34,950 bases of DNA from a virus, in IMG/VR virus record IMGVR_UViG_3300025872_000155, positions 1 to 34,950 of that record, one strand, 5' to 3'. The notes below the pieces were generated by a model. That model was not told the DNA's origin and ran no database searches. It saw nothing but the letters and a program-made list of their open reading frames with translations. The position numbers and the translations under genes are program-made. Below are positions 28,254-34,131 of this stretch, one piece after another. Numbering within the stretch: position 1 is the stretch's first letter; each line of letters begins with the position of its first letter.

Positions 28254-28450
28254 ATCGTCAATCTACTCCGCTTTCGCGGAGGGTGCCGGATAATCACCCC
28301 GTCAAACGGCACGCGCCGGTAGGTGCGCCGCCACTTGATATCCGCGATGGTGTGCTTCCACGTGCCGTGCGACATCGCAATCTCGCCGTAGGGGCGAACG
28401 TCGGCCAAGATTGAACGCACCTCGTCGTTACTGAATACCCTGCGTTTCAT
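28250..28450 (-). CDS. Single-HTH protein, paralogue of the upstream double-HTH protein
   Basis: A 66-aa protein. Residues 8-48 read NDEVRSILADVRPYGEIAMS then TWKHTIADIKWRRTYRRV, which align with residues 33-71 of the 164-aa protein upstream (VLADPRPYGEIA, TVAQIKARRLYAHV). So it is a one-domain relative arising by duplication. ATG 28450 overlaps the upstream stop (ATGA). Likely a DNA-binding protein, perhaps competing with or pairing with its larger relative. Confidence 0.7.
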   Translation of the reverse strand: MKRRVFSNDEVRSILADVRPYGEIAMSHGTWKHTIADIKWRRTYRRVPFDGVIIRHPPRKRSRLTI

Positions 28451-28941
28451 GCGCCCTCCAACTTCGCGAGCAGCGCCGCGCGCTCGTCGTCATACCGAGC
28501 CTTCAGCGCGCGCAGTTCGGCGCGTACTGTCTCGCGCGCCGACAACGGCGGCGTCAGATCGCGGGTGACATGCGTATACGCGAGGCCCTGCTTGATCCGG
28601 CGGACTGTGTGCTCGCTGACGCCGTGGTGGGCCGCAATCGCGCGCGATGAACCGGGGGAGAGATATATTTCCGCCACTTTCCCGGCATCGCCGCTGCGGG
28701 TGCCGCGAGGGATGTCGCCGGCGAACGAAACGTGCGCGTACAGCCGCCGCGCCTTGATCTGCGCAACCGTCTGATAGCTGACACCGTAGTCGTGCGCGAT
28801 CTCTCCATATGGCCGAGGATCGGCCAACACCTCTCGCACGACTTCGGCGGGCATCTTCTGGCGGCGCAGCGCCGCCGCTTCATCCACCTCCAACACTTCG
28901 AGCGCGTCTCGCGACCGCGCGACGACCCACGGATGCACCAT
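28447..28941 (-). CDS. Double-HTH DNA-binding protein, candidate regulator
   Basis: A 164-aa protein from ATG 28941, which has GGAGG nine bases upstream; the frame continues to 28992. Two HTH copies: residues 31-71 (PYGEIAHDYGVSYQTVAQIK, then YAHV) and 88-125 (IAAHHGVSEHTVRRIKQGLA, then YTHV), followed by a charged helix (ELRALKARYDDERAALLAKL) for dimerisation. The IAxxxGVSxxTVxxIKxxxxYxHV pattern is known from HTH domains linked to phage HNH endonucleases, but no nuclease is present here. It faces the rightward genes across a region with three operator-like repeats, so it is a candidate repressor (inference). Confidence 0.65.
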   Translation of the reverse strand: MVHPWVVARSRDALEVLEVDEAAALRRQKMPAEVVREVLADPRPYGEIAHDYGVSYQTVAQIKARRLYAHVSFAGDIPRGTRSGDAGKVAEIYLSPGSSRAIAAHHGVSEHTVRRIKQGLAYTHVTRDLTPPLSARETVRAELRALKARYDDERAALLAKLEGA

Positions 28942-28953
28942 GATAATAACCCT

Positions 28954-28966
28954 CCAGACTGTCTGG
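28954..28966. promoter_or_regulatory. Operator-like palindrome 1 (CCAGACTGTCTGG)
   Basis: A 13-bp perfect palindrome around a central T, 13 bases upstream of the leftward HTH gene start and just upstream of its Shine-Dalgarno. It shares the core CAGACTGTC with two sites in the same intergenic region. Confidence 0.55.
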
Positions 28967-29000
28967 GTATTTCCAGACCGAGCTTCAAGCACATTTCCTA

Positions 29001-29251: not shown

Positions 29252-29282
29252 TTTGACAGACTGTCAAAATCGAAGGTATGAA
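29252..29282 (+). promoter_or_regulatory. Rightward promoter with operator palindrome over the -35 box
   Basis: A 17-bp perfect palindrome TTTGACAGACTGTCAAA (29252-29268) contains TTGACA (29253-29258) as a -35 box. TATGAA (29277-29282) lies 18 bases later as a moderate -10. The 239-aa gene starts 24 bases downstream. A protein binding this palindrome would block RNA polymerase. The palindrome also contains the CAGACTGTC core of sites 1 and 2. Confidence 0.6.
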
Positions 29283-29306: not shown

Positions 29307-30026
29307 ATGGACATTGAAGCCCTTCTTTCCGCCGACGTCATCTACAACATCGACTACGTCGCGATGCGGGCCACTCTGAACCGGGCCCTTGAGAAGGCCA
29401 AGGCGGCCGCCTCGGACGTCTACCTCGCCATCCCCTACGAGGACCGTTGCACCGACGAGCTGTCGGCGCAGTACCACGGCACGATCTACCCGCATACGCT
29501 GCCGGGCTGGTTGAAGAAGCTACCGCAGTCGGTCAGCCCGACGCACGCCGCAGCCCTTGAAGCTTACCGGGCTCTCGAAGCCCTCGCCCCGATCTGCGCT
29601 AAATTCGTCGCCGCCAAGGGCCGCGTCGTGAAGGCCCGCAAGCCGTCGACCGCCGTCCGCAAGACCCCCGCGCGGACGCTTGATAACACCGGCACCTGCG
29701 CCTGCTGCGGCCAGAACGTGAAGCTCGACGGCGGCGTCATCGTCGCCCACGGCTACACGATCCGCTGGGGCTTTCAGTCGGGTTCCTGCTTCGGCGTCGG
29801 CTTTCGCCCCATCGAAGTGTCGGACGAGGGCCTGCGGGCCGCCCTGCAGGGCTTTGAGAGCCGGCTGGGCAAGGCCCGCCTCTCGCTGGAGTACGGCGCC
29901 CTGACGCGCCGCGAGCGGGCCGAGCTGGAGGGCCGCGTCAGCGGCTCGAAGGCGGCCATCGCGCACTACACGGCGGCGATCCGCGACTGGGCCCCCCGCC
30001 CCCTCCCCACCGAAAAGAGGAGTTAG
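29307..30026 (+). CDS. Phage protein with CxCC zinc-binding-like motif, upstream of mom-like gene
   Basis: A 239-aa protein from ATG 29307 with GGAG eight bases upstream; the frame is open from 29253 but that part is promoter DNA. The N-terminal 120 residues are helical. A basic linker leads to a compact domain: NTGTCACCGQNVKLDGG, VAHGYTIRWGFQSGSCFGVG and FRPIEVSDEGL, with C131, C133, C134, H148 and C161 as possible metal ligands. I recall similar domains in phage and plasmid proteins without known function. The C-terminal region is helical (ERAELEGRVSGSKAAIAHYT). It ends two bases before the mom-like gene and carries that gene's Shine-Dalgarno, so they form one operon. Confidence 0.7.
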   Translation: MDIEALLSADVIYNIDYVAMRATLNRALEKAKAAASDVYLAIPYEDRCTDELSAQYHGTIYPHTLPGWLKKLPQSVSPTHAAALEAYRALEALAPICAKFVAAKGRVVKARKPSTAVRKTPARTLDNTGTCACCGQNVKLDGGVIVAHGYTIRWGFQSGSCFGVGFRPIEVSDEGLRAALQGFESRLGKARLSLEYGALTRRERAELEGRVSGSKAAIAHYTAAIRDWAPRPLPTEKRS

Positions 30027-30028
30027 AC

Positions 30029-30631
30029 ATGTCGCATGATCAAGTGCGAGCCTTTCGGGCGGCTGACTGGGTCGTAAAACCCGCACCCTTGGCCGACGGT
30101 CAGAGGATGGTTCGCGAACATCACTACGCACGCGGCGGCAGTAACACCTGCGTGTATATGCACGGCTTGTACAGACGCAGCGACGATACGCTCTGCGGAG
30201 TGGCATGGTGGCTGCCGCCGACGCGCGTCGCATGTGAGAGCGTCAACAAGGCTGATTGGAAGCGCGTGCTGTCGTTGACTAGGCTGGTGGTATTACCGAA
30301 CGTGCCCGCGCCTAACGCGGCATCCTATTTGATTGGACGGTCAATTAGGTTAATTCGCGCGGAGGGCCGTTTCGTATCGCTGGTCACTTACGCCGACGAG
30401 TACATGGGCCACACGGGCGGCATTTATCGCGCAACCAACTGGCGGTACGTCGGCCGCACGGGGCCGTACCCGCGCTGGGAAACCGCTGAGGGCAAGCAGG
30501 TCGCCGTTAAAGCCACGGTTAATCGCACAAAGGCTGAAATGCTCGCGTTAGGGCACCACCGCGTAGGTGCGTACTACAAGCATAAGTTTGTGATGCACTT
30601 ACACCCCGCCCCCTCCGAAAAGAGGATTTGA
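30029..30631 (+). CDS. Mom-family DNA-modification protein (adenine acetamidation-type, GNAT-like fold)
   Basis: A 200-aa protein. Conserved Mom-family pieces are in order: REHHYARGGSNTCVYMHGLY (29-48), LCGVAWWLPP (55-64), WKRVLSLTRLVVLPNVPAPN (77-96), SYLIGRSIRLIR, then LVTYADEYMGHTGGIYRATN (119-137) with WRYVGRTGPYPRW. The YAD..xGHxGxIYxAxNWxYxG block is the strongest signature of phage Mu Mom. Mom changes adenine to N6-carbamoylmethyladenine and protects phage DNA from host restriction. Whether this homologue makes the same base is not known. The gene has more AT-ending codons than the gene before it. Its stop codon lies inside the -35 box of the next promoter. Confidence 0.82.
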   Translation: MSHDQVRAFRAADWVVKPAPLADGQRMVREHHYARGGSNTCVYMHGLYRRSDDTLCGVAWWLPPTRVACESVNKADWKRVLSLTRLVVLPNVPAPNAASYLIGRSIRLIRAEGRFVSLVTYADEYMGHTGGIYRATNWRYVGRTGPYPRWETAEGKQVAVKATVNRTKAEMLALGHHRVGAYYKHKFVMHLHPAPSEKRI

Positions 30632-30656
30632 CACCCCTCCCCACCTGCCCCATAGT
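30628..30656 (+). promoter_or_regulatory. Repeated promoter cassette, copy 1
   Basis: TTGACA (30628-30633), 17-base spacer, CATAGT (30651-30656). The -10 lies in a near inverted repeat TGCCCC-ATAGTC-GGGACA, followed by TCGAATAGGAGA with the Shine-Dalgarno of the 68-aa gene. The TGA of the mom-like gene is part of the -35. Copies 2 and 3 are at 33041 and 33881. Confidence 0.8.
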
Positions 30657-33004: not shown

Positions 33005-33040
33005 CGTCGTTAGCCCTGATCCGGCCTGTGGTTAAGTCAT

Positions 33041-33069
33041 TTGACAACCTCTCCTGAATGCCCCATAGT
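33041..33069 (+). promoter_or_regulatory. Repeated promoter cassette, copy 2
   Basis: TTGACA (33041-33046), 17-base spacer, CATAGT (33064-33069). The -10 is inside a perfect inverted repeat TGCCCC-ATAGTC-GGGGCA (33060-33077), followed by TCAGATAGGAGA as in copy 1. This is the most symmetrical copy. Confidence 0.82.
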
Positions 33070-33093
33070 CGGGGCATCAGATAGGAGATGGCA

Positions 33094-33369
33094 ATGACAC
33101 AGATCAAGACCCGCACCGTCACTTGGGGCTCCATCGTAGGTTCCGCCGCCTTCCGCGCGGGCGTCGAGGACTATCAGGCGGGGCGCGCGCCCGACTACGA
33201 CAAGTACCCGCTAGCCAAGGGCAACTGGCAGTACGAGCGCGGGCGGCAGTACGCCGCCGCCTGCGCGGGGCAGGGCAAGACCCCGCAGCGCAACCGCTGC
33301 GGCCGCAGTGTCAGTCGGTCCGCCATCCACGACTTTGCCAACATGTACGGCCCGCAGGGCGTCCTGTGA
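33094..33369 (+). CDS. Small phage protein (91 aa) with YERGRQYA motif
   Basis: The start is ATG 33094 with GGAG six bases upstream; the ATG at 33088 abuts it. The middle, FRAGVEDYQAGRAPDYDKYP then AKGNWQYERGRQYAAAC, recalls small phage proteins with a GxxDYxAGR...W.YERGRQ.A order, loosely like the RMF/CrpP ribosome-modulation fold. That likeness is weak and untested. The C-terminus is basic (GKTPQRNRCGRSVSR). It follows promoter copy 2. Confidence 0.65.
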   Translation: MTQIKTRTVTWGSIVGSAAFRAGVEDYQAGRAPDYDKYPLAKGNWQYERGRQYAAACAGQGKTPQRNRCGRSVSRSAIHDFANMYGPQGVL

Positions 33370-33392: not shown

Positions 33393-33884
33393 ATGTACAC
33401 GATCCTTTGGAGCCGTTCGGGCAATTACGACGGTATTGACTGGGACGACGAACAGACGATCACGTTCCGGCGGAAGCGCAAGGGCTTCGAAGTCGTTTCT
33501 CTCCACCCCGGCGCAGGCTACCACGGCGCGTTCACCGACATTGCTGACCGCATGCTGCTCGATGAGGCCACGGAGTGGCTTAACAATGACGGCTACGCCG
33601 TTGCAAAAAAGACGGCCGGACCCGCCACCCCTCGTCGCAAGACCCACGCCCGCGACTACACGCACACCCGGACGTTCTGCGGCCGCGCCTTGGTTGGCCG
33701 GGCGCAAAGGCAGGCGACGAGCGCCGAACAGACAACATGTGTCATCTGCCTCCGAAAATGGGCGCACAGCATCGAGGGAACCCTTAACCGAGCGATGTCG
33801 GATGCGGTAGACGCGCAAAAAATAATAACTCAGTTGCGCCGCGATCACGCAACGCTTCGTCGAAAAGTGAAAAAGAACCGTTGA
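33393..33884 (+). CDS. Phage accessory protein with C-terminal Cys motif (163 aa)
   Basis: The start is ATG 33393 with GGAAAGGA upstream; a longer frame from 33123 is shadow of the previous gene. Residues 1-70 form one domain (YTILWSRSGNYDGIDWDDEQ, then FEVVSLHPGAGYHGAFTD). The second half has THTRTFCGRALVG ... TTCVICLRKW, a C...CxxC set that may bind zinc, then a basic helical tail (LRRDHATLRRKVKKNR). Possible nucleic-acid binding, inferred from charge only. Its TGA lies inside the -35 box of promoter copy 3. Confidence 0.6.
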   Translation: MYTILWSRSGNYDGIDWDDEQTITFRRKRKGFEVVSLHPGAGYHGAFTDIADRMLLDEATEWLNNDGYAVAKKTAGPATPRRKTHARDYTHTRTFCGRALVGRAQRQATSAEQTTCVICLRKWAHSIEGTLNRAMSDAVDAQKIITQLRRDHATLRRKVKKNR

Positions 33885-33910
33885 CCCCGGCTCCCGATCT
33901 GCCCCATAGT
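33881..33910 (+). promoter_or_regulatory. Repeated promoter cassette, copy 3
   Basis: TTGACC (33881-33886), 18-base spacer, CATAGT (33905-33910), with the flanks TGCCC upstream and CAGGACATCGAATAGGAGA downstream. It is slightly weaker than copies 1 and 2 by match. The stop codon of the 163-aa gene is in the -35 box. Confidence 0.72.
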
Positions 33911-33936
33911 CAGGACATCGAATAGGAGACAGCATC

Positions 33937-34131
33937 ATGATCGACCTTTTCATCGCCATCGACCTCGAAGACAAATATCGCCGTTGGATGCAGGTTGAGC
34001 CCGCCGCTTGGCGGCTCGACGACAGCCACCCTCGCGACACCCGCAGGGTGTTTATTCAGTTGTATCGCGCGTTTCCAAGCGATCTGCTGCTTGAGTACGA
34101 AGTCACCGCCAGCGAAAGGAGCGTCGCATGA
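33937..34131 (+). CDS. Small phage protein (64 aa), unknown function
   Basis: A 64-aa protein: MIDLFIAIDLEDKYRRWMQV, then RDTRRVFIQLYRAFPSDLLL. It follows promoter copy 3 (Shine-Dalgarno AGGAG). Its last codons hold a GAAAGGAG that serves the next gene, whose ATG overlaps its stop (ATGA). Not recognised. Confidence 0.6.
   Translation: MIDLFIAIDLEDKYRRWMQVEPAAWRLDDSHPRDTRRVFIQLYRAFPSDLLLEYEVTASERSVA

What the first reader, a model, noticed from the sequence alone, without database searches (positions are those of the whole stretch)
30029..30631. Mom-family DNA modification gene in a podovirus-like genome
The block YADEYMGHTGGIYRATN plus the upstream HHYARGG and LTRLVVLP pieces place this protein in the Mom family, best known from phage Mu, where Mom modifies adenine to N6-carbamoylmethyladenine and blocks restriction. 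Here it lies in a rightward accessory operon, not beside Mu com. It suggests that the phage protects its DNA by a hypermodified adenine.
Basis: partly seen in the sequence, partly recalled or inferred. Interest (0 to 1): 0.75.

Follow-up and report, generated by a model that had tools for sequence, protein, structure and literature searches.

The report
Mom DNA-modification gene, inserted as cassette
This virus of bacteria carries a relative of the phage Mu enzyme Mom, which decorates adenines in DNA so that host restriction enzymes cannot cut it; the enzyme family is well known outside Mu, but here one can see the gene dropped cleanly into a gene slot that close relatives have empty or filled with other genes.

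Summary
Window 30029-30631 (+) encodes a 200-aa Mom-family protein: Pfam Mom E 4e-26, PHROG 1384 E 1.6e-32. The model (pLDDT 90) matches the Mu Mom crystal structure (8bv8) best, then acetyltransferases. It keeps the residues shared with Mu Mom, including the serine (S99) matching Mu S124, whose alanine mutant is deposited as inactive. A podovirus-type portal and adaptor are present; no Com or Mor/C relative was found.

This kind is already known: 135 records of the phage collection encode Mom-like proteins. New here are: (1) a deep, strongly supported Mom clade found only in uncultivated viruses and one Hymenobacter contig; (2) a clean empty site. Five close relatives carry the flanking genes joined, with one copy of a ~30-bp repeat where the window has mom between two copies; two others hold different genes there. 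Mom's last eight residues copy the upstream protein's end, and its stop codon lies inside the next gene's putative -35 box; (3) three relatives (TerL 91-96% identical) carry two other, non-orthologous Mom types elsewhere. Repeated capture suggests selection for adenine hypermodification. Chemistry, sequence specificity and restriction protection are inferred by homology. New member of a known kind.

The parts
30029..30631 (+). mom gene, 200 aa, Mom-family GNAT-fold DNA-modification protein
   Evidence: Pfam PF25680 4e-26; PHROG 1384 1.6e-32; AF2 pLDDT 90.1, Foldseek best hit 8bv8 Mu Mom
30122..30127 (+). codons of the invariant H32-Y33 of Mom
   Evidence: invariant in 29 aligned Mom proteins including Mu
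30323..30325 (+). codon of S99, aligned with Mu Mom S124 (S or T in every aligned Mom)
   Evidence: 8bv8 is titled 'inactive mutant S124A'
30389..30397 (+). codons of Y121-A122-D123 of the Y/F-A-D motif (A122 and D123 invariant)
29996..30025 (+). left copy of the ~30-bp direct repeat: 3' end of the upstream gene plus the RBS of mom
30604..30633 (+). right copy of the direct repeat: codes the tail PAPSEKRI of Mom and ends in TTGACA
29307..30026 (+). upstream neighbour, 239 aa, unknown function, CxxC-containing; kept in relatives without mom
   Evidence: phrog_28271 1.6e-18; 76-88% DNA identity in L045, L091, L086, L040, L052
30626..30684 (+). putative promoter-RBS module of the next gene (TTGACA-N17-CATAGT, dyad TGCCCC..GGGACA, AGGAGAT, ATG); its -35 box holds the stop codon of mom
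33039..33097 (+). second copy of the promoter-RBS module
   Evidence: 76% to the first copy
33880..33938 (+). third copy of the promoter-RBS module
   Evidence: 69% to the first copy
29252..29268 (+). 17-bp perfect palindrome TTTGACAGACTGTCAAA before the operon, overlapping a possible -35 box; candidate operator
   Evidence: sequence and counts
28447..28992 (-). divergent HTH DNA-binding protein, candidate regulator of the right-arm operon
   Evidence: Pfam HTH_28 1.2e-07

Best explanation
The gene encodes a Mom-family, GNAT-fold enzyme that adds a carbamoylmethyl-type group to the exocyclic N6 of adenines in the phage's own DNA during infection, so that host restriction endonucleases no longer recognise it. 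The phage gained it as a single-gene cassette: recombination placed mom between the 3' end of the upstream gene and the promoter of the next gene. It supplied an RBS on the left and an in-frame end on the right and left the downstream -35 box intact. Transcription most likely comes from the upstream operon promoter, without Com or C. Shown by computation: family, fold, conserved active-site residues, empty site, different cargo in the slot, other Mom types in close relatives, purifying selection in the family. Inferred: chemistry, donor, target sites, timing, protection.
For: Pfam Mom 4e-26; PHROG Mom-like 1.6e-32; profile comparison of the clade with Mu Mom, probability 96.9, E 2e-10; AF2 pLDDT 90.1, pTM 0.84; Foldseek PDB best hits are both chains of 8bv8 (E 9.5e-12 and 5.0e-11, TM 0.70 and 0.73), next hits are N-acetyltransferases at E about 4e-6. 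Eleven residues invariant across 29 Mom proteins including Mu (H32 Y33 G46 G57 L83 R85 N96 A122 D123 G130 Y133); S99 aligns with Mu S124. dN/dS about 0.05-0.06 in close pairs of Mom genes. Empty site in five relatives, other cargo in two. Two other Mom types in relatives with TerL 91-96% identical.
Against: Only 18% identity to Mu Mom, the member I know to be chemically characterised; the clade has its own blocks (AWWLPPT, CESVN, TGPYPRW), so donor or product could differ. No isolate, virion DNA or expression data. The window copy has no near-identical homologue, so selection on this very gene could not be measured. Three other loci (L005, L011, L020) also score at the floor of the flank-repeat test, so the empty site, not the repeat alone, carries the insertion argument.
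Confidence: 0.77

Rival explanations
1. A Mom-family enzyme that modifies DNA but with another adduct or base context than Mu (for example another acyl or aminoacyl group on adenine).
For: The clade is separated by a long, fully supported branch (support 100/99, length 3.78) and has private conserved blocks absent from Mu Mom.
Against: The core invariant set and the catalytic serine position are unchanged, and the fold matches Mu Mom better than any other solved structure.
Confidence: 0.15
2. An ordinary GNAT acetyltransferase acting on a protein, tRNA or small molecule, with a Mom-like sequence by common descent.
For: GNAT folds follow in the structure search; some phage Mom-like genes are annotated 'acetyltransferase'.
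Against: No other Pfam family was reported even with the limit at E 10; Mu Mom outranks all acetyltransferases in the fold search by five orders of magnitude in E-value.
Confidence: 0.05
3. A recently captured passenger gene with no function in this phage.
For: GC3 0.70 against 0.88-0.96 in the two downstream and one upstream neighbours, more TTA, AGG and GTA codons; absent from relatives with readable flanks.
Against: Intact frame with all signature residues and a good RBS; other window genes also have low GC3 (0.62-0.75); the same phage group gained two other Mom types independently.
Confidence: 0.05

Closest known systems
Mom of phage Mu (PDB 8bv8; Pfam PF25680)
   Same: GNAT-type fold (TM 0.70); H-Y, G, L-x-R, N-x-x-S, A-D, G, Y signature; single-gene DNA modifier in a tailed phage
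   Different: 18% identity; no com overlap, no C-type activator found; sits in a right-arm operon as an inserted cassette
Mom-like proteins of PHROG 1384 (Salmonella VSiP / FSL SP-031, Listeria A511, Corynebacterium Stickynote, Staphylococcus PMBT8 and others)
   Same: Same family; also single accessory genes in non-Mu phages
   Different: 25-32% identity; separate clade in the tree
Mom homologue of Bacillus podovirus Thornton (PMC9965433)
   Same: mom in a podovirus, flanked by a short direct repeat (21 bp) that is single-copy in a relative lacking it
   Different: Different phage family and genome position; here the repeat also grafts the protein's tail and spares a promoter
Jumbo-phage Mom fused to restriction-fold nucleases (PMC7824862)
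   Same: Mom domain proposed as self-protection
   Different: No nuclease fused here; one relative (L021) is instead fused to a SNF2-type helicase

Membership tests
Mom family (PF25680 / PHROG 1384) | Profile match above the curated cut-off | tested here: met
   92.4 bits against 27.1, E 4e-26; PHROG 1.6e-32
Mom family (PF25680 / PHROG 1384) | GNAT-like fold closest to Mu Mom | tested here: met
   AF2 pLDDT 90.1; best PDB hit 8bv8, E 9.5e-12, TM 0.70
Mom family (PF25680 / PHROG 1384) | Conserved active-site set, including the residue of Mu S124 | tested here: met
   H32 Y33 R85 N96 A122 D123 G130 Y133 invariant; S99 = Mu S124 position, S/T in all rows
Mom family (PF25680 / PHROG 1384) | Product N6-(carbamoylmethyl)adenine in DNA | not testable with these tools
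   needs LC-MS of virion or plasmid DNA
Mom family (PF25680 / PHROG 1384) | Protection from restriction enzymes | not testable with these tools
   needs digestion or plaquing assays
Mu-type com-mom operon | Overlapping upstream com gene (zinc-ribbon translational activator) | tested here: not met
   No PF10122 match in the window at E <= 10; the upstream 239-aa gene has CxxC but occurs in relatives without mom
Mu-type com-mom operon | Mor/C-family late activator | tested here: not met
   No PF08765 match in the window at E <= 1; the window is a partial genome
Mu-type com-mom operon | Start region folded so as to hide the RBS | tested here: inconclusive
   window start region no more stable than shuffles (z +0.63), but the Mu control region did not stand out either (z 0.00)
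Podovirus | Podovirus-type portal and adaptor | tested here: met
   SU10_portal 9.1e-15, SU10_adaptor 8.8e-09, both over the cut-off; morphology itself not tested

The most novel reading that the evidence does not exclude
This lineage of uncultivated podovirus-like phages repeatedly captures unrelated mom genes (three non-orthologous types at three places among close relatives) through a modular right arm. There, a repeated promoter-operator-RBS module and short repeats act as docking points, so that adenine hypermodification is a swappable counter-defence trait. The mom clade may make an adduct that differs from Mu's.
Probability: 0.45. Interest if true: 0.5.

Novelty: new member of a known kind. 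Interest (0 to 1): 0.36.

Why it matters
Most study of Mom has been on phage Mu, where it sits in an elaborate com/C/Dam control circuit (my knowledge). A deep clade without com, seen beside its empty insertion site, shows mom as a stand-alone plug-in module. It gives a matched set (mom present, absent, or of another type in nearly identical phages) for testing what the modification is worth against host restriction. The clade is a sensible source of enzymes for asking which parts of Mom set donor and sequence specificity.

Tried and rejected
(1) Com-like role of the upstream CxxC protein: rejected, it is kept in relatives lacking mom and does not match the Com profile. (2) A hairpin hiding the mom start as in Mu: the window start region is not more stable than shuffles, but the Mu control did not stand out either, so the test has no power. 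(3) mom generally flanked by repeats: not general; of 28 loci the window scores highest, and only L005, L011 and L020 also reach the p floor. (4) mom in introns: Rfam found none in the window or in 11 mom loci. (5) mom regularly beside a tRNA, which would hint at an aminoacyl-tRNA donor: only L015/L016 have one, a single case. (6) A general link to DNA polymerase: seen in L002, VSiP and a fragment in L003, not in others; PF00476 was found only in the L003 record of six searched, below its cut-off. (7) Defence-system match for Mom in PADLOC: none. (8) Host of the window: the nearest TerL with a named host is from Roseobacter phages at about 42% identity, too far to call.

Full report
Observation. 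The frame 30029-30631 (+) is intact and codes 200 aa; all three quoted motif blocks are present. It matches Pfam Mom at E 4e-26, well over the curated cut-off, and PHROG 1384 'Mom-like DNA modification protein' at 1.6e-32. Sequence alone finds Mu Mom in the PDB at E 0.0018.

Fold and active site. An AlphaFold2 model from 20 sequences of its own clade has pLDDT 90.1 and pTM 0.84. The best solved structures are the two chains of 8bv8, Mu Mom S124A, at E 9.5e-12 and 5.0e-11; the next are N-acetyltransferases at E about 4e-6. Mu S124 lies in NSES and is Ala in the deposited chain; the window has NAAS with S99 at that place, and every aligned Mom has S or T there. H32, Y33, G46, G57, L83, R85, N96, A122, D123, G130 and Y133 are invariant over 29 proteins including Mu. 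Close pairs of Mom genes show dN/dS 0.05-0.06.

How unusual it is. Mom-like genes lie in 135 records of the phage collection, with hosts from Listeria to Halogranum, at up to about 33% identity to this one. Published notes cover Bacillus podoviruses (PMC9965433) and jumbo phages (PMC7824862). Closer relatives (41-71%) occur in 20 loci of the IMG/VR viral contigs and in one Hymenobacter contig. In a tree they form one clade on a long branch with support 100/99. Some other rows in that tree have long branches, so the order outside the clade is unsure.

Empty site. Contigs with related large terminases were fetched. In L045, L091, L086, L040 and L052 (TerL 91-96% identical) the upstream gene aligns up to 30029-30033, and the next aligned block starts at 30604 on the same stretch of the relative: mom is missing and the ~30-bp sequence CCCCCTCCCC(A/T)CCGAAAAGAGG..TTGACA occurs once (L052 differs at one base). 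In the window it occurs twice, before and after mom. L044 has another gene between such copies and L047 begins another. In the relatives the upstream protein ends in RPLPSEKRG or similar, with its TGA stop inside TTGACA; in the window that end reads RPLPTEKRS with a TAG stop, and Mom now ends in PAPSEKRI with the TGA inside TTGACA. The last four residues are of low confidence in the model. So mom seems to have been spliced in by recombination at this short sequence; loss by deletion between repeats cannot be strictly excluded, but the other cargo in the slot favours gain. GC3 of mom is 0.70 against 0.88-0.96 in the nearest neighbours, although some other window genes are as low. The same arrangement on a smaller scale was reported for the Mom homologue of Bacillus phage Thornton (PMC9965433).

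Promoter module. TTGACA-N17-CATAGT begins at 30628, directly at the end of mom. The pattern TTGACA-N16-18-NATANT occurs twice in the window against 0.03 expected. A 59-nt unit holding it, a dyad over the -10 region and the RBS, occurs three times in the right arm (30626, 33039, 33880) and in relatives. The insertion thus kept the putative downstream promoter whole. Upstream, the operon starts near the perfect palindrome TTTGACAGACTGTCAAA, opposite a divergent HTH gene. These are sequence matches, not shown functions.

Other Mom types in the same phages. L035 and L052 encode a 215-aa Mom (Pfam 1.4e-27 for the L035 protein) and L044 a 232-aa Mom (5.2e-22), at other places in the right arm and only about 30-33% identical to the window's. 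The equivalent of the L035/L052 site would lie past the window end, which stops in a 12-bp tandem repeat. Many relatives are short contigs, so their lack of mom is not proof of absence.

Mechanism. By homology, the enzyme transfers a carbamoylmethyl-type group to adenine N6 in phage DNA and blocks restriction (for Mu: my knowledge, with PMC8072286 and PMC10002423). Donor, product and target motif for this clade are not known and cannot be read from sequence. Mu-type control is not seen: no Com, no Mor/C in the window, with the caution that the record is partial.

Verdict. It is a new member of a known family; the added value is the clean insertion anatomy and the repeated capture of different Mom types by one phage lineage.

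Noticed in passing
L021:5920-8088 (+): Mom domain fused in one 723-aa frame to a SNF2-type helicase (Pfam Mom 5.8e-26, SNF2-rel_dom 2.1e-10); L003 has a SNF2-type helicase 0.7 kb downstream of mom.
   Followed up: partly
L015/L016:4207-7759 (+): mom, with a tRNA gene that has an 8-nt loop and four-base anticodon GUCC, lies between two frames that look like the N- and C-terminal parts of a large terminase (only the C part matches Pfam); the N part looks intein-bearing in its Walker A.
   Followed up: partly
window:34747-34950: Contig end runs into a 12-bp tandem repeat coding a four-residue A-T-x-A/E repeat; the assembly probably broke there.
   Followed up: no
window:30626, 33039, 33880 (+): Repeated 59-nt promoter-dyad-RBS module before right-arm genes, also in relatives; looks like a phage regulon with an operator over the -10 box.
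   Followed up: partly
window:28954-29268: AGACTGTC occurs three times in the 35-kb window, all in this divergent intergenic region, twice inside perfect palindromes; related sequences in L035 and L040.
   Followed up: partly
window:12330-13244 (-): Major capsid protein weakly matches Mu-like gpT (23.2 bits, cut-off 20.1).
   Followed up: no
window:15474-15911 (-): GroES-like co-chaperonin gene within the structural cluster (PHROG 3188, 6.7e-11).
   Followed up: no
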